Shown here piece after piece: positions 14,546 to 55,244 of a stretch of DNA of 64,000 bases. Source of the stretch: Isoetes taiwanensis (Eukaryota > Streptophyta > Lycopodiopsida > Isoetales > Isoetaceae); the NCBI GenBank assembly GCA_021234155.1, contig JAJEKV010000001.1:14120356-14184355 (forward strand). Direction: 5' to 3'. Numbering within the stretch: the first letter of the stretch is position 1; every line of letters starts with the position of its first letter. A program made the position numbers and the translations under genes. The notes under the pieces are model-generated. The model saw nothing but the letters and a program-made list of their open reading frames with translations, did no database searches and had not been told where the DNA came from.

Positions 14546-14546
14546 G

Positions 14547-33954: not shown

Positions 33955-33967
33955 TTCTTCCCACCTT
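33955..33967 (-). other. Copy B polypurine tract
   Basis: The minus strand reads AAGGTGGGAAGAA next to the LTR. Confidence 0.7.
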
Positions 33968-34839: not shown

Positions 34840-37800
34840 ATTAATCTACACAAATCGACATGCCCCGAGCCGATTTCTTCTGGAGATGACTTTGCCGCCC
34901 CATTGCTCCATAAACCGCGATAATCGCTTACAGATCTTTCTTAAGTACCCACGTCAAGTTTTCCACCGGGTAGTGTTTCCCACTTAACCAAATATTGAGG
35001 AACTCCGACCTCCCTTGTTTTCTTGAAAGCTTTATCGAATCACCGAACTATTTTTCCAAATGCCCTCCGCCATTTCCAATAACGTTGAGTGTCCAAGACT
35101 TCGTCCCGATTTGGAGTGTGCTTCTTCAACAAACTCACGTGGAAGATCTTATGAATCTTTAGGTGTGTCAAGGCAAGTCTAGCTTGAGGGATTGATTACC
35201 TACTTTGACTATTCCGGAAGGTCCGTACCCCACCTTTGAGCAAACTTCTTTGCAATTCCCTAATCCCGAAGCCTTGGTTTCACCTTGATCTTGAGCCAAA
35301 CATCATTTCCAACTTTGAACTCTCCGGGACCGCTCGATGCTTGTCGTGATGCTCTTTCCTTTAATTTCTTGCTGCTAGCAAATATCCTCTAACTTCTTTC
35401 CACGAAGCTGCCGTGATATTGGCCAACATCCGCCATGAAACTTCTACTTTTTGACATGGGATTGTGCCAAGTGTCCGAGTTAGGCACCGATAGTCGTGAA
35501 TTAATCATAAACTCCTTACATTTGGGATGATTCCTGCTAGTGCTATTGTATGCAAACCCACCAAGTGAATAAATTCTTCCCACATACCTTGCTTATTCCG
35601 CATATAGTTCCGTGAGCATGTCCTCCAAAACTCGTTGGTCTGGCTCCGCTTGGCCATCCGGGTTCGAGGATGATATGCCGTGCTCATGGATAGTTTCGTC
35701 TCGAATGGTCGCGAAAGAGGTCTTGCCGAAGGCACTCATAAACTTTGATCCCTCGGCTTGAGATAATTCTCTTGGCATGCCATGCAGTTTTCCGGCGATC
35801 TCTTTTGATGAAGAGCTTTGTCGTATCCATAGCCGTGATTCAGGAGCCCCGCGAAGGCACAAATGTGCCATTTTCGACAACTTGTCGACCACTACCATCA
35901 AGGCATCCTTTCCTCTGCATCGTTTTGGAAGCCCGTGATGAAATCCATGTCGACACCTCCCACTTAGCTGCCAAGGCAACCGCCACGGCTCTGAAGGCTC
36001 TCGAATTCTCGTAGCTGTCAGCTTCGCCCTCGGGCTTCATATAGTCGACATTCTCTGATTTAGCGAGCTATTTGCTTCTTTCATTCCTCAATAATAGCCG
36101 GCCAAGACTTTGAAGTATGTTTTCATGAACTCCCATGGTATCCTATTAAGCAGCGGTCATGGAGGATCAATTTCCTTACACCTGGCGATTTTGGGTAATG
36201 CGACAACTTGTTCTTATGGTATAACAAAGTTGCCTTCCTTCTATAATGTTTAAAGGTTCCCCCGCCTTATCTCGTTCTAGCCTCCTTTAGAGAGGCTTTG
36301 CCCATACTTCCTTGAAATCCACATCCGCTGGCAAGGACTCTTCAATCTTCTTACCAAAGTCACCGGAGAGCGCCGAATTGCATTGCAATGCACTCTAGTT
36401 GTCGATGCCTTGAAAGCGCATCCGCTACCACATTGAGCTTCCCCGGGCTTGTAGACTATATCAAAGTCATACCTTTCAAGGAACCCATCCACCTTCTCTG
36501 CCAGTTGAGGTGTGATTGCGCGAATACATACCGAGGCTCTGATGGTTCTGTATCCAACCGAACTTCCTTCCCAAAAGATAGTGCCTCCAAATTTTTAATG
36601 CCCCCGGACGACCGCAAGCAATTCCCCGATCGCGGGGTAGCCGGCTGCCCGCTCATCTTCCCCGAATCATACGCTACCACACGCCTTTCTTGCATGAGCA
36701 CTACACCAGAAGCTATCCTTATTTCGCTCGGCTCGCTGGCTGCTTATCTTTCTCAACCGCAAAGTTAGGACTGGGGCTGTTAAAGCTTCCTTTCAATAAT
36801 TCAAAACTCGCGGCTTTTCTTGTGCCAATGTTTCTACCCAATCTTTCTTCTCCCGCCCTCGCCGTCCGTTAATCCGGTCATTATCTTAGCAAAGTTCTTC
36901 ACTAACTTCCTCAGTACCGCTAGGCCGAAAACTCGACTTCATGCACATTCCTTCGGCCGCCACCTAACGATCTGCCAATCTTGGCAGGGTCCATCGAGAT
37001 TCCTTCACGAGATCACATGACCTGATATTCCCATCTTTCTTCTGCTATGGCGACACTGACAACTTGGCGCATAACCGTGCCTCTTCAACTTCTAGCACTT
37101 TCCTTAAGTGTTGCACGTGTTTTCAAGGATCCGCGAGACACCAAAATGTCATCAAAGAATACAATCACAAAGGTGTCTAAGAACTCTTGAAGATGTCGCC
37201 TATGAGCCTCATATGAACGCCGCTGGGGACATTCGGGATAGTCCGAAGGCATACTTTGAACTCATAATGCCCATACCGCTCAAGGCCTTGTGGATATCTT
37301 CTTCCTTTATCCTGATCTCGATGATAGCCTGACCTTTAAGTCGATTTTGGAGAAGACCTTTGCACCTTGAGCTGATCCATCAAGTCATCTGGATCCGGGG
37401 AGCGATATTTCAGTTCTTAATGGTGTGCTTGTTCAACCGCCTCATAGTCTATGCACATCCTTAAACCGCCATCCTTCTTCTTTACAAAGAGAATGGTGCT
37501 CCAAATGGCGAGACGGTCTAGCCTAGGTCGAGCAACCCCTCAGAAGTTGCTTCTTCATCCCGGCAACTCCTCGTCAGCTATTCTCATGAGCCTTTGCTTT
37601 GTCGGCTTTGAGCCCCCCCTGGTTCGAGGCTATCTCACACTTGACCCCCGTAGGAGGAAGTCGCTGATCTCATCCGAAAGAGATCATGGAACCCCCGATC
37701 GCCTTAGCTATTTTGCTTCGCAACTTGTTGAGCACCTTTGTTTCTTTTGCTTTTCCGACTGCCTCGCTAATCAATTCAAGCTTGAAGATGTATGCCACCT

Positions 37801-39600
37801 GCTCGCCGATGCACTTGAACAACCGCTTAGAAGACATACACCGCATGATGGGAACAACTTTAATTGTGATTCAATGATCTTGCCGCCGGGTGTTGGGAAG
37901 GTCACCTTTCCACAATCAATAATGGCCCTCGGCCGTTCAAGGTACTCATTCCTATGATCAAGTCGTATTTTGCTAATGCTCCATTACTTCGCCTTCATCT
38001 CGATATAATCCTTGTAAGTTTTATGTCGGGTTAATTTTCTTGCTCGCTGGCCCGGCCATTGCTCCACTCATAAGACAATCTGCCTTTGGCTTTTGACTTT
38101 AGTGGGAGCCAACTTCAACATTTGAACCATTCGGGGATGCAAAAGCTATGGCTACTTCGAAGCCTATCAAGACTATGAAGGACTTGGTCTGGCCTTCCTA
38201 CTGTGGAAATTACTTTATACCGGGCTTCTCTGCTTGCTCTCAGACTATTATGCAAAGATATGACACTTCACCTCTAAATGTAGTCATGCTCTTCGCCATC
38301 GCCGTCACGTAGTGTCCTTACTCCTCCCAACTCCGCTTAGTGCTGCGACTCATGACGAGGGGCAGCTTCGCCGTCTCTATATTCGGCAGAAGCACCAAGC
38401 AAAAGCTGCTTTTCTATGCACTCCCGCTCTTTCTTCTTGGCATATTTACAAAGGATCGCAGACTGCTGAGAATTAATTCTCCTCGCTTGTCCTTGAAGGA
38501 CACCTCCGCTTTTCTCCTCAGCGCCTCTTAAGTTGCCACCATATGGCTTCTACCGACCCTGACCGGGTTGCCCTATAGGGCTATAACTCCCTCGCTGCCT
38601 TCTGCTCTTTATCTCCGTAATGCTCGCCACCGCCCGCTATTCTCAGGTCCCCGTTTCCTGTAAGTTTATTGCCTGGATTCTCGCTTTCCGATACTGCCTT
38701 AGGATTTATTGCCCTACAAGCTTAAGCGCGATCTCTTCATTCGTGCCCCTCAATGTAGTTTCTAATGATGTTTTCCAACTTTGGCACATTACATAAAGTC
38801 TTAGCCTCATTATGAATTCTCTCAGGTATTTCTAGATCGATTGTTCCTCGTTGTAACCTCGTAGAATCGCCGTGACGCGCCGGACTTGTGCCCTTTAGAT
38901 CGCATTGGCGCTTTGCTTAAACTTCAACTTATAAGCATCCTCGCGCGCATGTTTTGTGATAACCCTTCCTTAACGAACCAGGCGGCTCCTTTTCTGCTGC
39001 CAATTGCCACTCGGCTTTTGTTCTTTATCTCTTCATAAGCATTGCCGTGATTTCACTCATTTCGTCTACCATGCTCTCGCTTTAATCCTCGACTGTTTCT
39101 CCCCTCGAGAACTGCTCTTAAAGCCTGCCTTCCATACATTGCTCCAAGGCGACCTACCTTTCGTAGTCGAGGTCTCAGGTCCCTTTTGTCGTCTCCTCCA
39201 TGGTGTCCTTCGCTTTTGTATCCGGCTGTTTTGTCTTGCATCTGTTCGGTCTCTGCCTCGACTTTTCCTCTGAAGCTCTGGTTCGACTTCAGCTTATCTG
39301 GTCCCCTCGAGCTGGGACTTTCTTTGTTCTTTGTCCTTCCTCGCTTTCTCCGCTGAAGCCGATGTTTATGCGAATCAGCTGCTGCTCAATCAACTGGGCT
39401 TCGCTATGCTGCCAAGAAAGCCTTTATCCGCCAAGGTCCGGCCCTCATCTGCGGATATTTTCTTCTTCGGGTCATGGGTCCAAATTTCAAACAGTTCCTT
39501 TTGCTCTTAGGTGGTTCCCTGGCTTTACCGTTTTCCCTAAGGTCTTGCATTGTCGCTCCTCGAAGTTTAGGCCTTCTAACCGCATACACAAGTAATTCAT
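34840..39600 (-). pseudogene. pol: Copy B ORF3 gag-pol, heavily frameshifted
   Basis: It has the same domain order as element A. It starts at the ATG ending at 39,600 (ATGAATTACTTGTGTATG). Visible parts on the minus strand are knuckle and protease near 37,850-38,430, RT near 36,900-37,700, RNase H 36,277-36,700 (ERYDFDIVYKPGEAQCGS), integrase core 35,390-36,050 (MWEEFIHLV at its end) and a degraded GPY/F-chromodomain 34,850-35,330. No open frame exceeds about 170 codons. Many breaks sit where element A has CTG or CAG. Confidence 0.8.
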
Positions 39601-39757
39601 GGCTATATGGTTGTTTTACTTGTTTCTCTTGTATTGAAAATGTTTGTTGGTATAGGTGTGGGGGCAAAATACATCAACAAAACATTTAAAGTGCAACGTA
39701 AATTATATTCATAGCATATATATATAATATTTAGTAGCAAAAGTCTCCCGATCAAGA

Positions 39758-41221
39758 GTTCAACTAGTCTTGGAACGTTTCCAGAAGATCGTTGTCTTCA
39801 TGAACTTTCTTAATTCTAATGTTCACGACCTGAAAGCCTGGAGGACGCGGTTGAGCGCTTCGCGGTTTCGCTAGTTTACCTCCGCGGTCGGTTAGGTACT
39901 GGGCGGTTATCGCTTAATCTTCGGGCTTCGCTGATAGTATATGGTTCGGCGAGGTCGCGCTATTGTTCCTTCGACGACAAGATAGTCACGCTTTTCGTCG
40001 CTATTCAGCATGCCTACCGCTCCTCGAGGTAATCACTGCGGAACACCCTTCTTCACCTCCGGCTGAACTTACAAGGGTCAATCGCTTACTCTCCCATCTA
40101 CAGCCGCGTAGTACTCGTGGATCCGCTGCCAGCGTCAGCGATGATTCTCCACTTGTTTATTTCCTCGCTTATGTCACCGTAAGATATTCGCCGACCTCTA
40201 TCTCTTGAGTTCCCCTTGGCAGTTTTCACTAGGAGAGCCCACTCGGCCAGGTCGCATTCTCCCCTCAAGCCTTCTTGCCGGGGTGGGTGGTGTCAAGGCT
40301 CGGGCATTAGGATGCTCTGTGGGTCTTCCCACCATCCCCATTCTGTTTCTTGGAGGGCTGCAGGAACTCCTCCTCCTGGCGCCCGCCGGGCCCATCATCT
40401 GGCCTCGATGCCGCCGTAGGCCCCGATGCCCAAGTCGCATCAGGTAGGTGCTCTGGGCCCCTCACTTGAAGCGGAAAGTTCGAGGCTCCTGACGGCGAAG
40501 TCGCCCAAGCTCCGGGACCGTAGCCGGGTGGAGCACCATCCAACTGAGCCCTCCCCGCATTCTGCTCCTCGATGCCCACCGGTGAGCAGATACCCTCCGC
40601 TGATGATGATAGGCCAGCTTGTGATGCCTAGCCCGCTGGGGAGCAATCGATAGTCCGGCCGTCCGCCGAAGCCGACCAGCCCTGCTCGCTTGTTGCCGTT
40701 TCTTCCTCCTCGAGTCGAAAGGCCCGCGGTACTTATTGTCGCCCGACTTCTTCCTCGCTTCTTTCCCTCGTTTTGCCGATATCGTAATCATCTTCCTTCT
40801 CAGGCTGCAAGAGGATCCACCTCCATCTGAGGATAGAGGTTGCTCCCATTGGGTTTTCTGCCACGGATAAGAAAATAGCTAGGGCGGCTATTAGGAGAGA
40901 AATACTATCCCTGTTGGTCAGTCGTGACCATGTAGTCGAAGCCTCTCGCGCTTTGTTAGTTAGGTACTTTACATGTTAGACATCACCCAAGGCTGCTTGA
41001 AGGGATGGGCGGGAACGAAATAATTCTATGCAAGGGGGAACCTCGAACAAGGAGGGTCCTACCCTAGCTTGAAACTCAAGCTAACACTTCTGCCTATATG
41101 CCGGCTTGCATTTAGCTTAGCTTGATATCAATTTCTTTCCCAAAGACTTGGAAGATGTCGCGACATCCTTCTAAGAAAGATGGGTACCTGGCTGCACTCA
41201 TCAGCCTCAAGAAAGGGCTAT
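39758..41221 (-). pseudogene. Copy B ORF2, start codon lost
   Basis: Homologous to 10,371-11,897 and 49,680-51,175 (GxGITSWPIIISG block near 40,620). The start position reads ATA instead of ATG at 41,219-41,221. A TATA box lies at 41,332-41,341. Product unknown. Confidence 0.55.
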
Positions 41222-41331
41222 TGATCTAAATAAGAAGAGAGTATCGAACGATGCGTAAGCCGCCTCGTGGAGCCGGGAAGATCGCCTACAAAAGGAGAGC
41301 AACTCTGTGGTGCTAAATGAGAAATGAGGAC

Positions 41332-41341
41332 CTATTTATAG
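41332..41341 (-). promoter_or_regulatory. TATA box before copy B ORF2
   Basis: CTATAAATAG on the minus strand, about 115 bases before the ORF2 start position. Confidence 0.6.
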
Positions 41342-41892
41342 AAAAAGGGGAAACCCTAATTTGGATGACCTAGACCATCGAGATTGGGTGATTCCGATCT
41401 ATTAAAGGGTGCAATTGAGAGTTTGAAGACTACTTAGGTTGCCTGAGCATGTCTAAGATGGGCTAATGAACCCATTGCAACAATTTGGATCATTGAGGAA
41501 GAAAATGCCTCCATCGAGCAATGAAAAAGCTCATTTCGCCCGGCGCCACGCAGAGGACATGGGTTCTTAAATACAAACTTAATCATTTGGATAATCTAAG
41601 GTCGTAATTCTACTAAACTCGGGCCGAAGAAGCGTAATTGACCCCTATTTGGTCAATTTGAAGTATTTGGCATGGTCTCAACACGCTATGCCTGTACCAA
41701 AATGAGAATTCATTTTTCTCAGTCTCAAGGCGACACGTAGAGACATTATCACCTAATTTGCTCAAACCCAATTCTACCCAAAATAAAAGCCACAAAAAAT
41801 CATATCTAAGCTTAATTAAACAAGATTGAACTCATTATTTACAATAAAAAATTCTCTTTTATATTAACAAAAATTTTATTATTACAAGAAGT

Positions 41893-42852
41893 TCAAGGCC
41901 GCTCTCCTTTGATGTGTCTCGCCAAAATATATCTCGCTTCTTATGAGCGCGAATTTCAAGGGTAATCAGGCAAAAGCCGCTGGAATCTCAAAATGTCGCG
42001 ACTATTTTCACTCGCTGCCTCCCCGTAGGCACAACAAAGATCCTTACCTGGGCCACCCCATGTCCGCAGGTTGTACTCCTCGCATGACTTCTCTGACCAA
42101 GCGTTGAAACGTGCCCGGGATCATGAGCCCACAAATCTCTTCCGAAGTGTCGATTTCGAGCTTCTCTCGCCTTTCCGCTGTTCTGCTCCGCTTTTCCCCG
42201 TGCTCGAGGCTTGGGCTTTACCACGCCATGGCGCTGTGCTCCTTAATCTTCTTCTCGGCGACCTTGACCGGCTCATCACGTATGCCTTCCCGCTGTGGCC
42301 TTCGCCGCTGGGCTTTAGCTCTATCCACGCTCTTGTGCTGGGTGGGGGCTTTGGGCGCTGTCTTTGATGCTCTTTGGTTTCCTTCTTTCTTCGCCGCTCA
42401 CGGCCAGGTTATTGTCACCGCTTCCTGCCTTCTTTCGCCCTTCGCCAGCTTCCTTGTCTTCATATATATTCTCATCGATGAAGGCCGCTGAGAAATTGCT
42501 TCTTCTACATAGTATAAGTTGCCACGGCCGGGCCAGCTTCTCTCTCCTCCTCCTCCCCGCAGACGCCCAAGCCTCGAAGTTGCTCCTCGACCGTTTACGC
42601 CTATCTGCTCCTCGCTGTTTCCGCTTCTCCTCTCTCCTCCGCGATCTCGAATTTGCTCCATAATGTCTCGCCGCCTCTATGACCTCCGCTTTGTCAGCTC
42701 TCCGTCCGATCCTCCTTCTTTACCGGGAAGAAGATTCGGCCTTTGCCGAAAAGTCGCTCTTGCAAGATCCTCTCGAATCAGGCCGGGTCATCAAGGCCGG
42801 AGGATCCGGCTTGGCCAGCTTCCTCAAGCGGTCCGCTTTGCGCGTGGGCTAT
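41893..42852 (-). pseudogene. Copy B ORF1: histone H3-like, badly frameshifted
   Basis: It aligns with copy C from the start region (42,852, here ATA for ATG) to the stop at 41,893. The H3 fold is recognisable in pieces: [16 protein letters not shown] near 42,090-42,130 (one residue lost) and LLCL near 42,030. The 5' part (42,760-42,850) aligns by nucleotide to the H3-tail start of copy C, although the frame is lost. Confidence 0.7.
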
Positions 42853-42949
42853 GTTTGACTTGCTTCCCGATCCGAAGCAGGCGCCGTACATCGCTTTGGC
42901 AAAGGAGAGCAGATTTTCAAGGTGGTACGCGAATTGAGGGGATCGAGGT

Positions 42950-42959
42950 CTATTTATAG
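42950..42959 (-). promoter_or_regulatory. TATA box before copy B ORF1
   Basis: CTATAAATAG on the minus strand, about 98 bases before the ORF1 start position. Confidence 0.6.
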
Positions 42960-43043
42960 GTCGACTTTAGGTCAAACTTCAAACTACCTTTTGGGTTGCC
43001 TAAAACATCTAGTAAAACACCTACTTAAACATGGTTCATTGAC

Positions 43044-43312
43044 GCCATGCCTGCACTACCACGAAAAGCTCATTTCCTGCCTCGCCGACGCAGAGACATG
43101 GTAGGGCCTACCGGGCTAGATTTTTATGCTTTCTACACATATATAACATGCTAATTTTACTAATTCTTGACTGAATTAGAAATTTGCCGCTAATTTTCTC
43201 TCGCGGATTTGTGACTTTTGCGTGTTTGTGCCGCATCGTTCCCTACATCGCTATGCTTCCAGCCCTCAAAACCGAGAATCTCTATCTCGCCCGGCGCGAC
43301 GCAGGAGACCAA
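43044..43312. other. Two hairpin repeats upstream of copy B ORF1
   Basis: Degraded copies (43,044-43,103 and 43,241-43,312) of the hairpins at 53,084 and 53,286; the ends and the loop GAAAAGCTCATTTCCTG remain. The two downstream hairpins are at about 41,519-41,563 and 41,674-41,735. Confidence 0.5.
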
Positions 43313-43513
43313 TTCCTACTTTTTGAAGTTGGTCACCAATTTCAGTCTTTTTTATGTTTTCATTATGTTTTCACTTAACTGTTAATAGCTTAGCATCTAC
43401 TACAAAATGAGAAAAACTTTTCCCACTTTTCGAGGTTTATGATCCTATCGTTAGTACTATCGAACATGGTCGCTGCTTTGTCTTGGTCGCCAAGAACATT
43501 GTCGACGTACCAC

Positions 43514-43768
43514 CGTGACGCCTACTACTGCGGCAACGTCCCACCGATACAAAACAGAGTTCATCCCCATACCAGCTCCATGCCGAGCACAGGGCCTCCA
43601 CATGACACTGAAACCGGATCGGTGGTTCTAGTGGGAAGAGTGAAGGGCTATTTTACTCCCCGCCTCCCTCGCTCACGAAGCCGCGAAGGTGAATATGGCA
43701 TGTCGTAAGATATAACATAAGCACATATCCACCTCGGCGGGTGGTCCATCACATCTGCATAAACAAGG
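43514..43768 (-). repeat. Truncated LTR between internals B and C
   Basis: It matches the first 255 bases of the family LTR (GTGACG to AAACAAGG) and then jumps into the internal sequence GTCTCCCCACCTTGGG (as at 33,994). A short GGG microhomology spans the junction. About 1.4 kb of LTR, the polypurine tract and about 35 internal bases are missing. Confidence 0.88.
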
Positions 43769-44599
43769 GGGTCTCCCCACCTTGGGATCATCCTAACTCG
43801 GTGAATCAACCTCGACATATACGAGATAAAACCTATTTATAATATTTATTATTATTTATTAAGATTACCTTAAAGGTGTAATATTTTTACATTATTACCA
43901 TTAGAGTATTATGAAATAATTCAATTCATAAACATCTTTAAGCAAGTTACCGGATAGTTTTACTCTATCACGACAATTAAGTTTATCAAAATTTTAACAT
44001 TCATGTCTAACATTATTGTTAAATGGTAATCTTCATTCCTTGCAACACATTCCAACAAAATTTGTGTTGTAAGTCTTCGACCTCCTTGCCCCTCGAGCTT
44101 CTATTGGCTGCGTGTGTCGACACTAATTAGTACCCATTTTAATTATTAATAAAAAATTTTGGTTATATGGTGACCACCCCACCTATCTACATGGATGCAT
44201 GGCTAATCTCCTACAGAGGGAAGAGGGTGAATCTTCCATTATGGCCGTGGAGACAAATTTATATGCCTATATGCCGCCATGCCTACACCTAGTTGCCCCA
44301 ACAGGCGATGATAGGTCCTTCCCCATATGGGGGCGGAAGGCCTGATTCCTCCTATCAAAGCATATATGGGCTAGAGGTGCTTTTCCCATCGCATTCCTTA
44401 ATGACCTCCTTTCTCTCGAGGTCGCCTACTGCGGGGACGTATAGACTTTCTAATCTACCTTCCACTCGCCTGTTAGCGAAAACGCCATGCCTACATTGAC
44501 ATTACACCACTTCCTAGAGATCACCGTGAGTGGTCCCATCATTTCGGTAACGACGCGATGCGACCCATACCTAGTATAGGTCATCGTAGATTAATCTTA

Positions 44600-47500
44600 A
44601 CTATACAAGAATTAATCTACACAAATCGACATGCCCGAGCCGCATTTCTTCGGAGATGACTTTTACGTCCCATTGCTCCATAAAGCTGCGGATATCGCTT
44701 TTACTAGATCTTTTCTTAAGTACCCACGCCGTCTTCCACCTAGTGTTTCCACTTAACCAAATATTGGAGGAACTCCGACCTCCTTGTTTTCTTGAAAGCT
44801 TTATCGTGAATCAATTGAACTATTTCCAAATCGCCTCCTCTGTCATTTCCAATAACGTTGGAGTGTCCAAGACTTAAATGCGGATTTGGAGTGTGCTTCT
44901 TCAACAAACTCACGTGGAAGATCTTATGAATCTTTAGGTGTGTTTGGCAAGTCTAGCTTGTAGGATTGATTACCTACTCTTGACTATTCCTCGGAAGGTC
45001 CAGCCCACCTTGGAGAGCAAACTTCTTGCAATTCCTCCCCGAAGCCACCGCTTCACCTTGATCTTGAGCCAAACATCATTTCCAACTTTGAACTCTCGAC
45101 TTATTCGATGCTTGTCGGCGATGCTCTTCTCATTTACTTCTTGCGCTAGCAACATATCCTCTAACTTCTTCCACGAAATGCTGCATATTGGCAAACATCC
45201 GCCGCGAACTTCTACTTTTGACATGGATTGTGCCAAGTCCGAGTTAGGCACCGATAGTCGTGAATTAATCATAAACGGCATATTTGGGATGATTCCCGCT
45301 TGGTGCTATTGTATGCAAACTCCACCAAGTGAATAAATTCTTCCCACATACCTTGCTTATTCCGCACATAGTTCCGTAGTATGTCCTCCAAAATCTCGTT
45401 GGTTCGCTCCCGCTTGGCCATCCCGCCTCAGGATGATATGCCGTAACTCATGGATAGTTTCAATCTGGATGGTCGAGAAAGAGGTCTTGCCGAAAGGCAC
45501 TCATAAACTTTGGATCCCCGCTCGGAGATAATCTCTTTGGCATGCCATGAAGCCCAAGATCTCTTTGATGAAGAGCTTTGGTTGTATCCATAGCCGTGAC
45601 CGTGGTTCCGCAAGGCACAAAATGTGCCATTTTCGACAACTTGTCGACCACTACCATCAAGGCATCCTTTCCTCTTTAATCGCTCTTGGAAGCCCTGTGA
45701 TGAAATCCATGTCGATCACCTCCCACTTAGCGCCAGTAACGCTTAATGGCTCTAAGGCTCTCCGAATTCGTGAGTCTGCCTTCGTCACGACATAGTCGAC
45801 ATTCTCTCGATGAAGGAAGCTACATTTGCTTCTTCATTCCTGGCCAATAATAGTTAAGCAAGACTTTGAAGTATGTTTTCATGAATCCCGCAGATGGCCG
45901 CCTATTGGGTCAAGCAGCGTGTCATGGAGGATCAATTTCCTTACACCGATGATTTGGGTAACACAACTTGTTCTTATGGTATAACAGTTGCCTTCCTTTC
46001 TTATAATGTTTAAAGGCTTCCCGCCCTTATCCGTTCTAGCCTCCCTAGAGGCTTGCCCATACTTCCTTTGAAATCCACGCCCTGGCAAGGACTCTTCAAT
46101 CTTCTTACCAAAGTCACCGGAGAGCCGAAATTGCATTGCAATGCACTCTAGTTGTCGATGCCTTGAAAAGCGCATCCGCTACCACATTGAGCTTCCCCGC
46201 TTGTAGACTATATCAAAGTCATACTCTTCAAGGAACTCCATCCACCTTCTGCGCCTCGGTTGAGGTGTGATTATGTGAATACATACCGAGGCTCTCGATG
46301 GTTCAGATCCAACTGAACTTCCTTCCCAAAAGATAGTGCCTCCAAATTCTTAATGCCCCGACGACCGCAGCAATTCCTCGATCGTGGGTGGGGGTGGCGG
46401 CGTTCGCTGCCGCTCATCTTCCGGAATCATACGCTACCACACGCCTTCCTGCGATGAGCACTACACCAGAGCCTATCTTTACTCGCTGCCCGTCGCTACA
46501 AGCTTATCTTTCTCTCGGGTCCCAAGTGGTTAGACCGGGCTGTTGTTAAAGCTTCCTTCAATAATTCAAACCCCTTAAAGCTTGTTGCCAATGCTCTACC
46601 CAATCTTTTCACCTTCTCGCCCCTCGCCAAGTCTCATTAACGGGGGTCGCTTATCTTAGCAAAGTTCTTCACGAACTTCTGTAGTACTACCTCGCTAGGC
46701 GGAAAACTTCTCGACTTCATGCACATTCTTCGGGCCCCAATCGAATGACGGCTTCAATCTTAGGTGGTCCATCGAGATTCCTTCACGAGATCACATGACC
46801 CGTGTATTCCACCTTTTCAAGGCGGCGACACTTCGACAACTTGGCGCATAACCGGTGCCTCTTCAACTTCTCTAGCACTCTCCTTAAGTGTTGTACGTGC
46901 TCTTCAAGGGATCTCGCTATACACCAAAATGTCATCAAAGAATACAATCACAAAGGTGTCTAAGAACTCCTTGAAGATGTCGCTCATGAGCCTCCCGAAC
47001 GCCGCGGGACATTCGATAAGCCGAAAGGCATTACCATGAACTCATAATGCCCATACCGCTGCTCCGGCGTCTTTGTGGATATCTTCTTTTTTATCCCGAC
47101 CGATGATAGCCCCACCTTTAAGTCGATTTTGAGAAGACCTTTTGCACCTTGAGCTGATCCATCAAGTCATCTGATCCGAAGCGATACTTGTTCTTAATGG
47201 TGTGCTTATTCAACCGCCTATAGTCTATGCACATCCTTAAACGCCATCCTTCTTTACAAAGAGAATGGGTGCTCCAAATGGCGAGACGCTAGCCTGGGTC
47301 GAGCAACCCTCCGAAGTTGTTTCTTCAGCCCGCCAACTCCTGCGTCCATTCTCAGATGTGGAGCCTTGTTTGTCGGCTTTGTTCCCTGCTCGAAAGTGCT
47401 ATCTCACACTTGACTCCCGTAGAAGGAGGGGAAGCCGCTTGATCTCATCTCGAAAGAGATCATGGAACTCGTGGATCAGCTTAGCTATTTGTTTCGGAAC

Positions 47501-49521
47501 TTGCCGAGCACCCCTCGCCTTCTTTGCTTTTCTCGACTCGGCTCATCAATCTCAAGCTTGAAGATGTATGCGCCGCCGCTCTTGATGCACTTGAACAGTA
47601 AGGGCTAGAAGACATACACCGCATGATGGGAACAACTTCTTTACACATGATCTCAATGATCTTGCCGTCGGGTGTTGGGAAGGTCACCTTTCCACAATCA
47701 ATAATGGCCCCCTCGCCGGTTCAAGGTACTCCATTCCTATGATCAAGTCGCATTTGCCAATGCCCATTACTTCTGCCCCCATCCGATATTAATCCGCAAG
47801 TCGATGTCGGGTTAAATTCTCTTTCTTTGCCGGGCCGCCTTCTTGCTCCACTTTGCTAAGACAACGGGCCTTGGCTTTGACTTTAGTGGTTTCAACTTCA
47901 ACATTTGAACCATTCTGGGATGCAAAGTTATGGCTACTTCGAAGTCTATCAGACTATGAAGGACTTGGTCTTGGCCTTCCCCATCGGGAAATTACTTTAT
48001 ACTTGGCTTCTCTCGCTTGCTCAGATCTATTATGCAAAGATATGACACTCACCCTGAATGTAGTCGCTGCCTTCCTCGCCATCGCCGCCGACAGTGTCCC
48101 AATCTCCCAACTCCGCCTAGTGCCGCACTCATGACGTAGGGGCAGTTCCGCTGTCCTATGGCCTGGCAGAAGCACACAAGCAAAGCCGCTTTTCTATGCA
48201 CTCGTCTCTTTTCCTTGGGCATAGCCTACAAAAAGGATCGTGACCGCTTTGGAGTAGTTTGACCCTCCCCGCTTGTCCTTGAAGGACACCCCGCTTTTCT
48301 CCTCGCCGCTTCCCCTAGTTGCCACCATATATATGGGCTCTAGCCGGCCGGACCGCTGCCCTAGGGCTATAACTCCCTGTTGCCTTGCCTTTATCCCGGT
48401 AATGCCGCTGCCTCGCCCCGCTATTCGTAGGTCCCGCTCCTTGCAAGCTTATTGCCTTGATTTCCCGTCTAATTGCCTTTAGGATTTATTGCCCTTACAA
48501 GCTCTCTTCATTCAGGATGTCTTCATTTGGCACATAAAGTCTTAGCCTCAATGTATTTGCTCTCTCATCTTTGGATCAATGTTTTTAAAACCCGCCCAAC
48601 TTTGGCACAAAAAATAAAGTCTTTAGCCTCATGAATTTTCCTATGGTTAAAATGCATATTTTTTAGAATTTGTTCCCCAATAATAAGTAAATCAGAATTT
48701 TTGCATCATCTTTGGACTTGTGCTTTTGCCTTGAAAATGAAAAATATTATGGCGCTTTGAAGGCTTTGGCAAACTTCAAGAACTTACAAAACATCCCTAA
48801 GGCAAGCCATGTGCCTTTTTAACGTATTTTAACCCTTCCACCAAATCCGTGCGGCTCCTTTTTTGTGCTGTTGCCAATTGCCACTCTCCCTTTGTCTTTA
48901 TCCTTCATACCATAAGCATTGCCTGCATAACCCACTCATTTTTCAAGTTGCCAATTGCCATGCCTTTGTCTTTATCCTTCTAATCCTGACCACTCATTTC
49001 TCCCCTCGCTTCTAACTGCTTTCTCCCCGAATCGTTCCGGGCCTTCCATACATTGCCCAGTCGAATCTACCTTCTTCGGTAGTCGAGGCCCCCGTGTCCC
49101 TTTGTCGTCCCCCTCCATGGTGTCCCTCCGCCTTGCATCTGTTGTGTTTCTTTGTCTTGCATCCGTTGGGTCCTGGGCTGATCTTCTTCTTCCTGAGTCG
49201 GTCGACTTCGAGCTTGAGTCCAGAGTCCGAAATGGGGACCTTCTTCTCTTGCTCCTCTTCTTGTCCTTCCGCGCTCGAAGATGCTTGCGGTAACCGAAGC
49301 GTTGCTCACCAGAACCAGCTCACGCTATGCTGCCAAAAAAGCCTTTATCTGCTCAAGGTCCGTCCTCATCTGTGATATTTCTTCTTCTGGGGTCATGGGT
49401 CCAAATTCCTCAAACAGGTTCCTTGCCGGAGGTGGCCTGGGCAGACTCTGTTCTTCCCTAAGGTCTTGGCGTTGTCGTTCCCCTGAGCTTAGGCCTCTAA
49501 CTGCATACACAAGTAATTCAT
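44600..49521 (-). pseudogene. pol: Copy C ORF3 gag-pol, frameshifted
   Basis: It starts at the ATG ending at 49,521 with a charged N-terminus (TPEEEISQMRTDLEQIKAF at 49,325-49,510). Then follow the knuckle region near 48,030-48,200, the protease/linker (47,481-47,700, KEVVPIMRCMSS), RT 46,700-47,450, RNase H 45,950-46,520, integrase 45,200-45,900 (MVVVDKLSKMAHFV at 45,640) and GPY/F-chromodomain 44,630-45,100. Two local tandem duplications of about 80-100 bases lie in the gag part (48,520-48,650 and 48,850-48,990). Nonfunctional as assembled. Confidence 0.82.
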
Positions 49522-49679
49522 GGCTATATGGTTAGTTTTACTTGTTCTCTTGCATTGCTTATGTTTGTTGGTATAGGTGTGGGGCAAAAATACATCAACA
49601 AAACATTTAAAGTGCAACAGAAATTATATTCATATATTATATATAATATTTTAGTACAAAAGTCTCCGGGATCAAGAGT
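49522..49679 (-). promoter_or_regulatory. Copy C ORF2-ORF3 spacer with TATA-like tract
   Basis: The minus strand carries ATTATATATAATATATG at about 49,635-49,655, about 115 bases before the ORF3 ATG. The spacing is like that of the TATA boxes before ORF1 and ORF2. Confidence 0.42.
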
Positions 49680-51175
49680 CTAACTAGTCTTGGAATCGTG
49701 GGTAAGATCGGTTGTCTTCAGGAACTTCTTAACTTGGGCCGTTCCTACCAATGACCGGTTCCTGATGACGCTTTTGCCGACGAGCAGCCAGCAAGCATGA
49801 GCTCTTCCACCTCGCGGTCGGGTCAGAACGGGGTCAATGCACATCTGCGCTATCGCCGATGGGGTATGGGCGAAGTCGAAGAGGTCAAGTGCCATTGCCC
49901 TCTTGACTAGGATGACATAGTCGGCGTTTCAGCTATTCGAGCATGCCCTCTTAGAAGCTTTGAGAGTGCAATCAGCGTGAACACCCCTTCTTCACCTCTC
50001 CGCTGAACTTGTATCACCGCTACTCTCCCATCTAGCGACGTGGCGCGTGTAGTACCTCGTGGGATGCGCTGCCAGCGTCGCGGATGATTCTCCACTTGTT
50101 TGGCCTCCCCTCTACTATGCCGCCCCATATTCGCCGACCTCTATCTCGGTGAGCTCCGGGGTAGTCTTCAATTGTTGAGTCGACTTCGCCAGGTCGACTC
50201 CCCGCCTCTTGCCGGGGTGGTGTCGGTCGGCACGGCATTAGGGATGCTCGTGGGTCTTCCCACCTGATCCCCATCTGTTTGGAGGGCGGAACTCCTCCTC
50301 CGCTGGGTGCTCTCGCCGTCCATCATTTGCCCGATCGGCCAGGGCCCGATGCCCAAGTCGGCTCTCCCGTAGGTGTCGGCCTCCCTCACTTGAAGCGGAA
50401 AGTCCGAGGCTCCCCTGACATGAAGTCGCCCAAGCCTGGACCGGCCGTAGCCGGGTGGAGCAGCTCATCCACCGGGCCCCTCCCTCGCATTCTGAAGGTT
50501 TCCTCGATGTCGCCGAGGAGTAGATACTCCTCTCCGCTGATGATGATAGGGGCTAGGCTTGTGATGCCCAGCCCAAGTGGGGAGCAACTCGAGAAGTCCG
50601 GCCGCCCCGCCGGCTGACCAGCCTCGCTCGCTGCGCTTTTTCGCTTCTTCCTCGAGTCGAGTCGGTGTACTTATTGTCGTCCCACTCCTCTTCTTCTTCC
50701 TCGGCTTTTCCTCGTTTTGCCGATATCACATTCTGCTCCTACTCTGGCGGCGCTATGGGATCCACCTCCATCTGAGGGATAGAGGTTGCTCCCATTGGGT
50801 TTTGGCATGGGATAAGAAAATAGCTAGGGCGGCGGTGGGAGAAATACTTGGTCCTGTTGGCCATCCGGGACCATGTAGTCTCCGCAGCCCTCTGCGCCTT
50901 GTTAGTTAAGGTACTTGGCGATGTTGGGGACATCACCCAAGGCTGCTTGAAGGATGGGCGGGGAACGAAATACCCTATGCAAGGGGGAACTCGAACAAGG
51001 GAGGGTCCTACCCTAGCTTGAAACTCTGCTAACACTTGCCTATATGTGGGTTGCATTTAAGCGTAACTTGGATATCAATTTCTTTCCCAAAGACTTGAAG
51101 ATGTCGTTGACATCCGCCTCGGCTAAAGATGGGCATCTGGCCTCGCCTGCCATCACTGAAGTCGTGAGCGGCCAT
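49680..51175 (-). pseudogene. Copy C ORF2, unknown product
   Basis: ATG ends at 51,175, stop at 49,680. Blocks shared with A and B: GLGITSLAPIIISGEEYLLL near 50,565-50,520, WRIIRDAGSASHE near 50,085 and ILVKRAMALDLFDFAHTP near 49,910-49,860. Frame changes split it into at least five pieces. No signal peptide, zinc finger or known domain is visible. Its promoter cassette copies that of ORF1, so the two genes may be expressed alike. Confidence 0.58.
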
Positions 51176-51291
51176 TGATCTAGCTAAGAAGAGAGTATCG
51201 AATCGGATGCGTGAAGCCTCGAGGAGCCGGAAGATCGCCTAAGCAAAGTGGAGAGCAAACTTGCGTGGGTGCTAAATGAGAAATGGAGGAC

Positions 51292-51301
51292 CTATTTATA
51301 G
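51292..51301 (-). promoter_or_regulatory. TATA box before copy C ORF2
   Basis: CTATAAATAG on the minus strand, 117-126 bases before the ORF2 ATG. The leader after it contains TTTGCTCTCCACTTTGC and GGCGATCTTCCGGC, close to the ORF1 leader. Confidence 0.65.
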
Positions 51302-51473
51302 AAAAGGGGAAAACCCTAATTTTTGGATGACCTAGAATTTACTGAGATTGGGTGATTCTGATCTATTAAAGGGTGCAATTGAGAGTTTGAAGACTACTTC
51401 TAGGGTTTGAGCATGCTAAGATGGGCTAATGAACCTATTGCAACAATTTGGAGATCATTTGGTGAAGAAAATG

Positions 51474-51525
51474 CCCAGACCGATAATGAAAAGTTCATTT
51501 TCTGTCCTGGCGCGACGTGTGAGAC
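51474..51525. other. Copy C hairpin 4 (ORF2-proximal, left arm partly lost)
   Basis: The right arm CTGGCGCGACGTGTGAGAC is complete (51,507-51,525). The left arm keeps only GCCCAG and the AATGAAAAGTTCATT inner stem. Confidence 0.6.
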
Positions 51526-51657
51526 ATGGGTTCTAAATGGGCTAAACTTAATCAATTTGGATAATCTAAGGCTGTAATTCTACTAAACTCGCCGAGTTAG
51601 GCAGAATTGACCCCTTATTTGGTCAATTTGGAGCAGTTTTGGGCATTTTTGGGCATG

Positions 51658-51724
51658 GTCTCACACGTTGCGCCCAGCCCAAAAATGAGAATCTCATTTT
51701 CTGTCCTGGCGCGACGTGTGAGAC
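51658..51724. other. Copy C hairpin 3
   Basis: A 67-base near-perfect hairpin: GTCTCACACGTTGCGCCCAG pairs with CTGGCGCGACGTGTGAGAC, and the inner AAAATGAGA pairs with TCTCATTTT. It lies between the ORF1 stop and the ORF2 TATA box. Confidence 0.85.
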
Positions 51725-51868
51725 ATCGTCTCAATTTTGCTCAAAAACTCCAATTTACCCAAAATAAAAGCCAAAAATCGATATCTAAGCTTAATTAAAC
51801 AAGATTGAACTCATTATTTACACAAAAATTCTTTATATTAACAAAAAATTTTATTATTTACAAGAAGT

Positions 51869-52897
51869 TCAAGGCCGTTCTCCCTTGATGTGTCTGGCCA
51901 AAAATATATCCTGCCTCATGAGCGTGACCCTCTTCGCGTGCACTGTGCAGGCCGTTGAATCTTCAAAATGCTGCACTATTTTCGCCTCTGCTACCTCCTG
52001 TAGGCACAACAGCATCTCATCGGTCACCCCCATGTCCGTGTTGTACTCCTGCATGACTTCTCGGACCAAGCGTTGAAACGGTGCCCGGGGGATCAAGAGT
52101 CCATAACTTCTCTGGAAGTGTCGGATTTCCTTGAGAGCTCTCTGCTCCTTCTGCTTGCTCTTGCTCCGCTTCTTTCCTGGTGCTCTGGGAGGCTTGGGCT
52201 TTGGTGGTGGCGGCCGAGGTCGACTCCTCGTCGGTGTCGCGCTTCAATTGTCCATTACCACATTGCTTTCGTAATAAGCATTGTATGCCTCCCACTTAGC
52301 CATATAGGCGTTGTGCTCATAATCTTCTTCGATAGACCTTGACCGGGTCTATCACGTATGCCCTCCTGTTGTGGCGGGCTTTAGCTCTATCCCACGGGAA
52401 AGGTGGGGGTTTGGCTGCCTTGATGCCCTTGGCCTTCCTCTTCTTCGGCCCATACATTTTGTGGTTGGGTCGCCTTCGGTTCTTAGATCCCTCTTTCCTC
52501 GGCCATCCTTGTCTTCATACTTACCGATGAAGGCAGCGAGGTCTGCTTCTTGGGCAGGGCTAAGCCGCGGTTGCCGTTCTCTCTCTCTCCTCCTCCTCTG
52601 ACGTGGGCCCAAGCCTCGAAGTTGCTCCCTGACCTGTCGGGCTGCCCTATCTGTTCCGTTGCTCTGCTTCTCCTCTCCTCTCCTCTGCGATCTCCTCGAA
52701 ATTTGCTCCATAATGTCGCCGCTCCTCCTCTATGACCTCCGTTTGTCAAGCTCGGTCCGATCCCTCCTCTTTCTTTGGAAGAAGATTAGCCTTGCTTAAA
52801 GTCGTTCTTGCAGTATCCTCTGAATCAGGCCGGGGTCACTGGCGCTGGAGGATCCGCGTCGGCGGGGCTTCCTGGCGGTCTGCTTTGCGCGGGCCAT
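51869..52897 (-). CDS. Copy C ORF1: histone H3-like protein with inserted linker
   Basis: The start at 52,897 gives [14 protein letters not shown], matching the H3 tail (MARTKQTARK) except Thr3 to Ala, with Lys4 and Lys9 kept. The C-terminal 125 codons (51,869-52,243) are open and uninterrupted: a Pro/Lys-rich stretch, then [60 protein letters not shown] and IKGERP before the stop. By eye about half of 90 aligned residues equal canonical H3, covering alphaN through alpha3. There is no CENH3 loop-1 insertion. Between tail and fold lie about 220 codons of Arg/Glu-rich, shifted sequence with [14 protein letters not shown], also in copy A. Normal H3 is 136 residues; this would be about 340. Confidence 0.88.
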
Positions 52898-52997
52898 GTT
52901 TGACGGTTCCCCGATCCGAGCTATGCGCCAGAAGATCGCCTTGGCAAAGGAGAGCAGATTTTCTAAGCAGGGTACGCGAAATTGAGGGGATCGAGGT

Positions 52998-53007
52998 CTA
53001 TTTATAG
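52998..53007 (-). promoter_or_regulatory. TATA box before copy C ORF1
   Basis: CTATAAATAG on the minus strand, about 101 bases before the ORF1 ATG. The leader contains TCTGCTCTCCTTTGCC and GGCGATCTTCTGGC, similar to the ORF2 leader. Confidence 0.68.
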
Positions 53008-53083
53008 GGGTCGATTTTAGGTCAAACTTCAAACTACCTTTTTGGGTTGCCTAAAACATCTAAAACACCTAAATTTAAACATG

Positions 53084-53150
53084 GTCTCACACGTTGCGCC
53101 CAGACCAATAATGAAAAGCTCATTTCCTGCTCTGGCGCGACGTGTGAGAC
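53084..53150. other. Copy C hairpin 2
   Basis: GTCTCACACGTTGCGCCCAG and CTGGCGCGACGTGTGAGAC form the stem, with inner AATGA/TCATT pairing. It is about 80 bases upstream of the ORF1 TATA box and is flanked by CATG and ATGG. Confidence 0.85.
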
Positions 53151-53285
53151 ATGGTGGGGCCTACTGCTAGATTTTATGCTTTCTACACATATAACATGCT
53201 AATTTTACTAATTCTTGACTCGAAATTAGAATTATCAAGTTAATTTTCTGTGATTTGTGACTTTTTGGTGTGTTTAAAATTGAAT

Positions 53286-53351
53286 GTCTCACATCGCTAA
53301 GCCCAAAATGAAAAATGAATCTCATTTCACCTTACCGCCGACGTGTGAGAC
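53286..53351. other. Copy C hairpin 1
   Basis: GTCTCACATCGC pairs imperfectly with GCCGACGTGTGAGAC; the inner AATGAATCTCATT is partly self-complementary. Confidence 0.65.
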
Positions 53352-53551
53352 CACCCTACTTTTTGGAAGTTGGCTCACCAATTTCAGTCTTTTTATGTTT
53401 TCATTATGTTTTCAGTCACTTCTAACTGTTACTAGCTTAGCATCTACTACAAAAATGAGAAAAACTTTTCCCCACTTTTCGAGGTTTAAGGATCCTATCA
53501 AGTTAGTACTACTGGGAACATGGTCAGTGCTTTGCTCTTGGTCGCCAAGAA

Positions 53552-53566
53552 CATTGCTCGATACCA
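53552..53566 (-). other. Copy C primer binding site
   Basis: The minus strand reads TGGTATCGAGCAATG a few bases after the 5' LTR, matching the initiator-Met tRNA site apart from one missing A. Confidence 0.72.
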
Positions 53567-53570
53567 TGCT

Positions 53571-55244
53571 TGTGGCGATCCCCTACTGGTATAGACGGTG
53601 CACCCACCGTGATACAAACAGGAGTTCATCCCCATACCAGCTCCATGCCGATCTGGGGCCCTCCACATGACACTTGCAAACCGTGGCCGGGTTCTAGTGG
53701 GAAGAGTGAAGGGGTCATTTTACCCGCCTCCCTCGTGGCCTACCTAGTCAGCGGAAGCGTAACATACATGTCAGTATATAACATAAGCACATATCCACCT
53801 CGAAGGGTGGTCCATCACATCTGCATAAACAAGGTGAGCACAATACATATGGGGAATCCTACCCAAGGCTCAGACTCCAGGGAATGACTGACGGCTTGGG
53901 TCTCCGTGAGTTCATTGCGCATGAGAATTCATGGCAATGGATTTGGGTGGCATAAGAACATCTTGACTTAGGGTTGTCCACTCCATCCGCCCCTCCTCAT
54001 GCACACTTTGCGAGAATAGGCTGAAAAGTGTCCGGGACCAGATTGCCCACGGGATGCATAGCCAAAGGGGCTATTCCTGGGTCTCATCCTCCCAGTTCCG
54101 ATGGGGCAGGAAGGGATCACTCCCCCCAGAGGTCTACATGCCGACTCAAGGTGACTAGAGGGCCACTGCCCGTATTCGACTGAACCCACTGGAAAGTGTA
54201 CACCACTTCACGAGTGTCGAGCCCATGCCTCACCCGCACTCAGTGGTGAGCCATTAGACCTAGTCACAATGATCCCTGGTAGGCCTTACACACCAGAGGG
54301 ATCTTTCAGGAGTCGGGACATGAACCTCCTTCTCAGCCAGTCTGGCCCCTTCACCCACAACTTGGTGTGGCTCTTGTACACAGGCCGAATCTATAGTGTG
54401 CTAGAGAGACTAATCTAGGAGCATCTACTACCAAACTTGAGGTCTCTACCCCCCTTCCCAATACAAGGAGTTCATAGAGATACATCATCCATATATATCA
54501 CAGAAGAACTAAAGAACTATATCTAATCTATATCATAGAGTTAGGTTCTTTAGTTAGAGTCTGGTATCTAGAGATCTAGAAGGCTGCTATGGGCAATTTA
54601 ATAGGCTAAACCTACTGATTCTATGACTGAAATAGGGTTTAGACTATTCAATTGGCCAAATACCTGATCCTTGAGTGGCTCCTCCTGACCTGAGTTCGAC
54701 CATCCTGCTGAAACGCTCGAATCAAGGGAAACTGATGGTGCAATTCTCTCAGGCAGAGTCTGGGAGGCGGTTTTGGCTCTTGAGGCAGCCAAAACAGAGC
54801 TCTAAAACCCTAGAAACGAAAAATGGGCAAGTTAGGGTTTTCCTTCTTAAATAGACAAGGGGTTGGCTAGGGTTTCCAATTATCCCCTTTAGGCATGTGG
54901 GATAATTGGGAATGGGCCCACTTGCCTTTAATGGCTAGGTGGCAAAATGTGCCCATATGGAAATGTGTGCCCACATTAATGTGTACATTGGAGAATGTGC
55001 ACATTAATTGCACACTTGGGTATGGCCCACTTGGCATCAAGTGTCCATATGGAAATGTGTGCCCACATTAATGTGTACATTGGAAAATGTGCACATTAAT
55101 AGTTGCACATATTCCTTGCAAGTTGCCCCCTAGGGCTACCCACCTGGCTACACGTTAGCGTACACGTCAGTCGGGGTGGCGTGTACGCGTGACGGGGCAG
55201 TACAGTATACGTCCTGGGACCGTATACTGTCCTGGAACGTCACA
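53571..55244 (-). repeat. Copy C LTR
   Basis: About 1,674 bp, TGTGGCGATCC to AACGTCACA, then ATTTT. It carries the inverted repeat at 54,594-54,654 and the tandem duplicated GTGTGCCCACATTAATGTG block (54,965-55,100). It is rich in intact CAG/CTG triplets compared with the copy B LTR. Confidence 0.93.

What the first reader, a model, noticed from the sequence alone, without database searches (positions are those of the whole stretch)
51869..52897. A Ty3/gypsy chromovirus that encodes a histone H3-like protein
ORF1 of copy C starts [10 protein letters not shown] (H3 tail, Lys4 and Lys9 kept) and ends in a complete H3 histone fold with [16 protein letters not shown] and IKGER and a stop where H3 ends. 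The fold is open over 125 codons. The same blocks in the same order occur in copies A (12,617-13,867) and B (41,893-42,852), so this is a family trait, not a chance insertion in one copy. About 220 codons of Arg/Glu-rich sequence separate tail and fold, unlike any ordinary H3. I know of no well-known LTR retrotransposon carrying a histone gene.
Basis: partly seen in the sequence, partly recalled or inferred. Interest (0 to 1): 0.95.

Follow-up and report, generated by a model that had tools for sequence, protein, structure and literature searches.

The report
Retrotransposon that encodes its own histone
In a plant genome that is very probably the quillwort Isoetes taiwanensis, a large family of jumping genes carries its own altered copy of histone H3, a protein that packages DNA, and evolution has kept that copy intact, so the element may be building itself into its host's chromatin.

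Summary
Window 51,872-52,243 (minus strand) is a real H3 fold (PF00125, E=2e-28) ending a broken ORF1 that opens with the H3 tail. Elsewhere in the same genome (size matches Isoetes taiwanensis) ORF1 is open: 411-459 codons in the 14 copies read in full, lying between the 5' LTR/primer site and an orphan ORF2, before gag-pol with a chromodomain. At least two lineages exist. Type 1 (fold 83-89% identical to host H3) has an orphan N-terminal part of over 300 residues in place of the tail. Type 2 (the window's type; fold 57-59%) starts with exact ARTKQTARK, then Pro; 419 genomic sites encode MARTKQTARKP. The fold is under strong purifying selection (pooled dN/dS 0.02-0.05, lowest part of ORF1), and the eight H3-H3' interface positions inspected are kept. 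Capture of H3 by a chromovirus, retained and diversified, is well supported. Function is inferred: most likely incorporation into host nucleosomes as an H3 replacement. No expression or chromatin data were available. Not every LTR-sharing copy has it: 1 of 5 primer sites taken without regard to H3 had the fold in place. The searches listed found no report of a retroelement-encoded core histone.

The parts
51869..52243 (-). H3 histone fold, C-terminal end of ORF1 of internal region C (stop at 51,869-51,871)
   Evidence: PF00125 E=2.1e-28; PDB H3 hits; 50 of 88 fold residues identical to host H3
52244..52897 (-). ORF1 5' part of C: H3-like tail [13 protein letters not shown] from 52,897, then spacer, broken by five stops
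50419..51202 (-). ORF2 remnant of C (orphan protein)
   Evidence: tblastn; type 1 vs type 2 ORF2 hhalign E=3e-8, probability 95%
46029..47938 (-). pol remnant of C
   Evidence: tblastn
40488..41275 (-). ORF2 remnant of B
36299..38004 (-). pol remnant of B
32307..55244 (-). composite insertion BC: LTR - internal C - LTR fragment - internal B - LTR; target duplication ATTTT at 32,302-32,306 and 55,245-55,249
53571..55244 (-). 5' LTR of the composite (K2P 0.229 to the other outer LTR, measured from 53,580)
32307..33982 (-). 3' LTR of the composite
43370..43768 (-). partial middle LTR between the internal regions
   Evidence: self-comparison
3029..16094 (-). element A, complete structure, target duplication CTTTG at 3,024-3,028 and 16,095-16,099
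14547..16094 (-). 5' LTR of A (K2P 0.092 to the 3' LTR)
3029..4570 (-). 3' LTR of A
12617..13867 (-). decayed ORF1 of A: MARTKQ from 13,867, H3 blocks near its end in several frames
11117..11948 (-). ORF2 remnant of A
6857..9525 (-). gag-pol remnant of A
5423..6169 (-). integrase C-terminus with SH3_Tf2-1 and Chromo domain of A
   Evidence: PF24626 E=7.7e-23, PF00385 E=1.2e-8

Best explanation
A lineage of Ty3/gypsy chromoviruses captured a host histone H3 and keeps it as the C-terminal part of ORF1, the first long ORF after the primer-binding site, followed by an orphan ORF2 and then gag-pol. Shown by sequence: a real H3 fold, fusion to a long N-terminal part, position inside LTR elements, lineages as far apart as synonymous saturation, strong purifying selection on the fold, retention of the H3-H3' interface positions and many nucleosome contacts. 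Inferred: the ORF1 protein enters the nucleus, pairs with host H4 and replaces host H3 in some nucleosomes, so that its long N-terminal part, instead of an ordinary tail, stands out from the nucleosome. I think the use is to make chromatin the element can live with. Type 1 has no ARTKQTARK tail, hence no K4 or K9 for host enzymes to mark, and offers its own domain instead (a stretch like H3 30-44, such as HPATGGK...KPHRFRPG, is still recognisable by eye, so a K27-like site is not excluded). Type 2 shows K4 and K9 but a proline where Ser10 should be and no recognisable K27 stretch: readers would see it, while S10 phosphorylation could not act on it. Docking of the element's own integration complex on such nucleosomes is a possible second use.
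For: Fold and interface: (8 of 8 H3-H3' positions that I listed from memory, C110, H113, R116, M120, D123, L126, A127, I130, are host-like in types 1a, 1b, 1c and 2 by majority residue). Fold dN/dS is the lowest part of ORF1: type 1a (5 copies) 0.024 against 0.142 N-terminal and 0.145 middle; type 1b (6 copies) 0.051 against 0.106 and 0.236; type 2 fold 0.039 (8 copies), and 0.036 against 0.227 and 0.137 in one full-length pair. In the 10 pairs of 1a there are 0-4 nonsynonymous changes where neutrality predicts 12-107: not obtainable by picking the best of about 10,000. Host H3 pairs look alike (26-45 synonymous, 1-3 nonsynonymous in 5 pairs). Tail: 419 sites code exactly MARTKQTARKP, reversed control 0; 17 of 30 type-2 folds in the range where the tail list is complete have such a site 0.8-1.4 kb upstream on the same strand, 0 of 30 on the wrong side. 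Element context. Precedent for nucleosome entry by an agent-encoded histone: bracovirus H4, and single viral H3s with long tails (PMC9145170, passages).
Against: Type 2 has changed several DNA-facing or loop positions (R63P, L65A, F84V) and its chaperone-recognition stretch 87-90 reads EMLL instead of host SAVL, so assembly by host chaperones is doubtful for it; 1b has L60P. Of five primer sites chosen without regard to H3 one had the fold, so copies without the cassette exist and may replicate, perhaps in trans. The chromodomain keeps only W45 of the three aromatic cage residues (by eye), so it is unlikely to read H3K9me by the HP1 mechanism. Copies compared for selection were found through their folds and, in type 1, picked for long frames.
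Confidence: 0.6

Rival explanations
1. ORF1 is a nucleic-acid packaging protein: the H3 half binds the element's cDNA or RNA in the particle or pre-integration complex, without entering host nucleosomes.
For: ORF1 begins 588-761 nt after the primer site in 10 of 12 copies, where a structural gene could sit; the middle region is highly charged (by eye).
Against: A gag with capsid domain already follows. DNA packaging alone would not need all H3-H3' positions nor a host-like ARTKQTARK at the exact N-terminus.
Confidence: 0.15
2. Decoy: the protein titrates H3 chaperones, writers or readers, weakening silencing, without stable incorporation.
For: Type 2 tail is an exact H3 1-9 peptide; fold diverged at the chaperone stretch; histone-tail mimics are known in viruses (listing only).
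Against: Type 1 has no such tail yet keeps the fold closest to host H3; constraint is strongest in the fold, including the tetramer interface.
Confidence: 0.13
3. Passive transduplication: an H3 gene fragment was picked up and is carried as dead cargo.
For: Gene capture by mobile elements is known; decayed copies exist, A and B among them; some LTR-sharing copies lack the fold.
Against: Fold dN/dS 0.02-0.05 and synonymous saturation between types with the fold still open; two lineages keep it next to homologous ORF2s.
Confidence: 0.03
4. Assembly artefact or host H3 pseudogene next to an element.
For: None found.
Against: 12 of 12 fetched copies are fused ORFs and 55 of 135 non-host-type places lie in open frames of 300 or more codons; LTRs, primer sites and target duplications frame copies.
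Confidence: 0.01

Closest known systems
Single viral histones: bracovirus H4, xenomavirus H3, Dishui Lake phycodnavirus H3 (PMC9145170, passages seen)
   Same: One host-like core histone in a mobile agent (folds mostly 73-89% identical to eukaryotic counterparts), some with an extended N-terminal tail; bracovirus H4 enters host nucleosomes
   Different: Those are DNA viruses or derivatives; here an LTR retrotransposon in many genomic copies, with an N-terminal part of over 300 residues and a second lineage at 57-59% identity. That review's main text has no occurrence of retrotransposon, retrovirus or RNA virus
Plant LTR retrotransposons with additional ORFs (PMC7264820, passages seen)
   Same: Extra ORFs beside gag-pol
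   Different: The review's main text has no occurrence of 'histone'
Phalaenopsis Gypsy elements with an ALKBH5-like RNA demethylase ORF (PMC9289625, passages seen)
   Same: Host-like enzyme domain acquired by Ty3/gypsy, active in vitro
   Different: RNA demethylase, not a chromatin structural protein
Chromoviruses with group II chromodomain (PMC3350952, passages seen)
   Same: pol with integrase-borne chromodomain; cage residues Y24 and Y48 missing
   Different: No H3-bearing ORF1 is mentioned in the passages seen
CENH3 / CENP-A (recalled)
   Same: H3 fold with a long divergent N-terminus
   Different: No lengthened loop 1: the 88 fold residues align to host H3 without gaps; encoded by a mobile element

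Membership tests
Ty3/gypsy chromovirus | LTRs with TG...CA ends and 5-bp target duplication | tested here: met
   TGTGACG...CGTCACA; AAAGT (L014), GTGGC (L011), CTTTG (window A), ATTTT (window BC); of 8 type-1 copies tested a convincing exact 5-bp duplication was seen in 2
Ty3/gypsy chromovirus | gag capsid, PR, RT, RNase H, INT in that order | tested here: met
   PF19259/PF03732, PF08284, PF00078, PF17917, PF17921 over cut-off; PF00665 (31.7 of 32.6 bits) and CCHC just or well below cut-off
Ty3/gypsy chromovirus | chromodomain at the INT C-terminus | tested here: met
   PF00385 over cut-off in L024, L025 and window A
Chromovirus with group I chromodomain | aromatic cage Y24, W45, Y48 | tested here: not met
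   only W45 kept, by eye against residues named in PMC3350952 and the recalled HP1 sequence: group II-like
Histone H3 | core histone profile over curated cut-off | tested here: met
   99.5 bits window C, 143.6 L009, 141.2 L010, cut-off 26.4
Histone H3 | H3-H3' four-helix bundle residues | tested here: met
   8 of 8 positions (recalled) identical to host in types 1a, 1b, 1c, 2 by majority
Histone H3 | about 135 residues with tail joined directly to the fold | tested here: not met
   ORF1 411-459 aa in 12 type-1 copies, 415-416 aa in L036/L039
CENH3 | lengthened loop 1 relative to H3 (recalled) | tested here: not met
   fold of 88 residues without gaps in 28 of 28 loci compared, 8 of them host H3
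Single viral histone of the bracovirus H4 kind | incorporation into host nucleosomes | not testable with these tools
   needs biochemistry

The most novel reading that the evidence does not exclude
The first known reverse-transcribing element that supplies its own nucleosomal histone: it replaces host H3 in part of the host chromatin with an H3 whose outer part is its own protein, evading silencing and possibly guiding its integration, and two lineages have evolved opposite solutions (tail replaced; tail copied exactly but with Pro at position 10).
Probability: 0.5. Interest if true: 0.97.

Novelty: new variant of a known kind. Interest (0 to 1): 0.92.

Why it matters
LTR elements are silenced through histone H3 marks. 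An element that brings its own H3 would act on the very protein that carries those marks. It makes testable whether a transposon can rewrite chromatin by supplying a histone variant, how much of H3 outside the fold is dispensable, and what in H3 stays under constraint when the host's interest is removed: the family is a natural mutational scan of H3 over long times.

Tried and rejected
Chance similarity: rejected. Misassembly or pseudogene: rejected. Passive capture: rejected by dN/dS. CENH3: rejected, no loop 1 insertion. Relatives elsewhere: full ORF1 found 4167 proteins, 120 listed, most aligned over 21-22% of the query, the size of the fold; 11 of them put into an alignment carry ordinary H3. 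The N-terminal 230 residues of L016 ORF1 matched none of 2376 candidates, the ORF2 alignment none of 7998. The method needs shared 5-residue words, so distant relatives are not excluded. A low identity (31%) between type-1 pol and window A pol first suggested distant clades; not upheld, since integrase is 81.5% identical over 157 aa (type 1 against L041) and some tiles reach 19-25 of 25; frameshifts lower the overall figure. Protein and codon trees of the fold do not settle whether there were one or two captures. A named chromovirus clade was not assigned for lack of a reference set.

Full report
Identity of the genome. The window lies in G000:C907 of a 1,658,258,908-base assembly of 1110 contigs. 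The published Isoetes taiwanensis assembly is 1658.30 Mb in 204 scaffolds plus 909 contigs (PMC8566536, passages). I take the source to be I. taiwanensis, an inference from size and piece number. That paper's main text has no occurrence of 'histone'.

The observation. Minus strand 52,897-51,869 reads an H3-like start, [10 protein letters not shown], and ends with an H3 fold and a stop where H3 ends; five stops lie between. The 124 codons 52,243-51,872 hit PF00125 with 99.5 bits, E=2.1e-28, and H3.3/H3.1 chains in the PDB with E near 1e-26. Copies A and B show the same blocks in order but broken within the fold.

The window's elements. A is a complete insertion, 3,029-16,094, minus strand, LTRs 88.9% identical by BLAST (K2P 0.092), target duplication CTTTG. 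It carries ORF1 remnants, ORF2 remnants, gag-pol remnants and an integrase end with a chromodomain. B and C are the two internal regions of one composite insertion, 32,307-55,244, outer LTRs at K2P 0.229, duplication ATTTT, with an LTR fragment at 43,370-43,768 between them.

Genome-wide. A PF00125 search of the own genome listed 150 scored hits of 8705 first-look candidates, 150 of 150 over cut-off. Fifteen are host-type H3: the same 15 places are 98-99% identical to a typed H3.3 peptide, and the eight read, L001-L008, are ordinary 136-codon H3 genes. The next places are at most 90% identical to it. Of the other 135 places, 55 lie in open frames of 300 or more codons and 36 of 400 or more. 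I fetched 12 of these 135, chosen for long frames: 12 of 12 are fused ORFs of 411-459 codons from the start codon chosen. L018 has in addition a short extension after the fold. Searching with the window's fold gave 150 scored hits of 9981 candidates, 84-100% identical, open frames up to 488 codons; the eight loci L033-L040 are the window-type family, L033 being window C itself, and in several of the eight ORF1 is broken.

Anatomy of the elements. Of 12 type-1 copies, 9 show a long direct repeat between their 5' and 3' pieces; the 8 measured have LTRs of about 1.6 kb (L016: 1.3 kb aligned) at K2P 0.027-0.092 (at a recalled 6.5e-9 per site and year about 2-7 million years, uncalibrated for Isoetes). 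Ends are TGTGACG/CGTCACA; the primer site TGGTATCAGAGC is of the initiator tRNA-Met type (recalled); ORF1 starts 588-761 nt after it in 10 of 12, with 3-9 other ATGs between, so how ORF1 is translated is open. The junction of LTR end and primer site occurs 4444 times within two mismatches, the reversed control 0 times. Then come ORF2 (443-469 codons in the three longest copies; no Pfam hit in the 4 copies scanned), gag with Ty3_capsid, protease, RT, RNase H, integrase and chromodomain. ORF2 of type 1 and type 2 are homologous: hhalign probability 95%, E=3e-8, 22% identity.

ORF1 types. Type 1a (five copies) starts ME-x-x-KQVY-x-RKPR, type 1b (six) MPRFKLTxDLKK, type 1c (one, L010) MANTKSAPD; 322-370 residues precede the ALREI motif at H3 residue 47. 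Just before it all three keep a stretch like H3 37-46 (such as KPHRYRPGTV), and 1b a stretch HPATGGK that resembles H3 30-34 or 11-14 (by eye). Type 2 (L036, L039 read in full) starts [12 protein letters not shown]: residues 1-9 of H3 exactly, then proline in place of Ser10, then about 315 residues rich in Glu, Arg, Lys and Pro, then the fold. The type-1a start can be lined up by eye with [12 protein letters not shown] (KQ..RKPR); a hint only. Codons for MARTKQTARKP occur at 419 sites, reversed control 0, 795 with one mismatch allowed; with Ser, Thr or some other residues at position 10 the tail occurs at 25 sites, 15 of them the 15 host H3 places. Of 30 type-2 folds in the part of the genome where the tail list is complete, 17 have an exact tail 0.8-1.4 kb upstream on the same strand, 0 downstream; 13 of 30 have none.

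Selection. Fold dN/dS (Nei-Gojobori, pooled pairs): 1a 0.024, 1b 0.051, type 2 0.039 (8 copies); N-terminal 230 residues 0.142, 0.106, 0.227 (type 2: one pair); middle 0.145, 0.236, 0.137. Copies were found through their folds, which favours conserved folds. That cannot be the cause: the 10 pairs of 1a show 0-4 nonsynonymous changes where 12-107 are expected without selection, and the pool was about 10,000 candidates. Window C, which the window and not a score supplied, shows 3-5 nonsynonymous changes where 34-59 would be expected against seven others, though those seven were picked by likeness to it. Between types and against host H3, synonymous sites are mostly saturated, so the capture is old; the number of captures is unresolved.

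What the fold has kept. Against host L004: 1a 77-78, 1b 73-76, 1c 78, type 2 50-52 of 88 identical. The eight H3-H3' residues that I listed from memory are kept in every type; R52, R69, R72, R83, K115, R116, V117, T118 are majority residues in every type. In type 1 the differences gather around 86-89 and 101-107; in type 2 they are spread over the fold. The chaperone-recognition stretch 87-90 (position as in PMC9145170, passages, and recall) reads SAVL or TAVL in the host genes read, HAIL in 1a, FAIL in 1b and 1c, EMLL in type 2. Type 2 also has R63P, L65A, F84V; 1b has L60P.

Results against a simple picture. Of the first five perfect LTR/primer-site places in the list (5 of 100 listed, 4444 in all), one (L045) has the fold at the expected distance, L042 has gag there, L046 LTR sequence, L043 and L044 nothing that matches held elements. 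So deleted, nested or H3-free relatives exist and may be common; five sites are too few for a rate, and five more could not be fetched. Type 1 against L041, the stretch downstream of type-2 copy L036 and presumably the same element: integrase 81.5% over 157 residues, protease region 51-55% over about 125; 10 of 28 gag-pol tiles and 10 of 14 integrase tiles match 15 or more of 25, the rest less, partly through frameshifts. ORF2 is only 22% identical between types. The 5' cassette has either evolved faster or been exchanged between elements; not settled.

How it probably works. Steps shown: capture, fusion, place in the element, selection on the fold, interface kept. Steps inferred: translation of ORF1, nuclear entry, pairing with H4, nucleosome assembly, effect on silencing. 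I put 0.6 on nucleosome entry as the main function. The chromodomain keeps only W45 of the cage named in PMC3350952 (passages; alignment by eye), and its best PDB match is the Chd1 chromodomain, so I do not build the case on it reading the element's own K9.

Relation to what is known. Agent-encoded single histones are known in DNA viruses (PMC9145170, passages; bracovirus H4, PMC5423620, start of abstract). Additional ORFs in plant LTR elements are known (PMC7264820, passages), including an acquired, active ALKBH5-like enzyme in orchid Gypsy elements (PMC9289625, passages). I found no report of a retrotransposon-encoded core histone (listings only; open-licence full texts, no preprints; most subscription papers are not held). 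I file it as a new variant of a known kind (gene capture by a chromovirus) whose cargo has no precedent that I could find.

Noticed in passing
window 32,307-55,244: Composite LTR-internal-LTR fragment-internal-LTR insertion with a single 5-bp target duplication at the outer ends: a tandem element, as from unequal recombination or template switching.
   Followed up: partly
window 57,453-60,963 and 60,476-64,000: Direct repeat of about 3.5 kb, 95.6% identical, at the end of the window.
   Followed up: no
window 1,372-3,106 and 16,119-18,465: ORFs that look like Ty1/copia-type gag and RT/RNase H (by eye), on either side of element A.
   Followed up: no
L042 (G000:C1:1695241-1695941): gag lies about 1.5 kb after a perfect type-1 primer site: an LTR-sharing copy without ORF1 and ORF2 there, deleted or primitively H3-free.
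   Followed up: partly
L011, L024 against L041: Integrase of types 1 and 2 is far more alike (81.5%) than ORF2 (22%): the 5' cassette may move between elements as a module or evolve faster.
   Followed up: partly
L027:5641-6264 and 4608-5303: Fragments of a second Gypsy-like pol near the type-1a copy of L015 (by eye).
   Followed up: no
L009-L020, between primer site and ORF1: 3-9 ATG triplets precede the ORF1 start in the 10 copies with a recognised primer site, which raises the question of how ORF1, ORF2 and gag are all translated.
   Followed up: no
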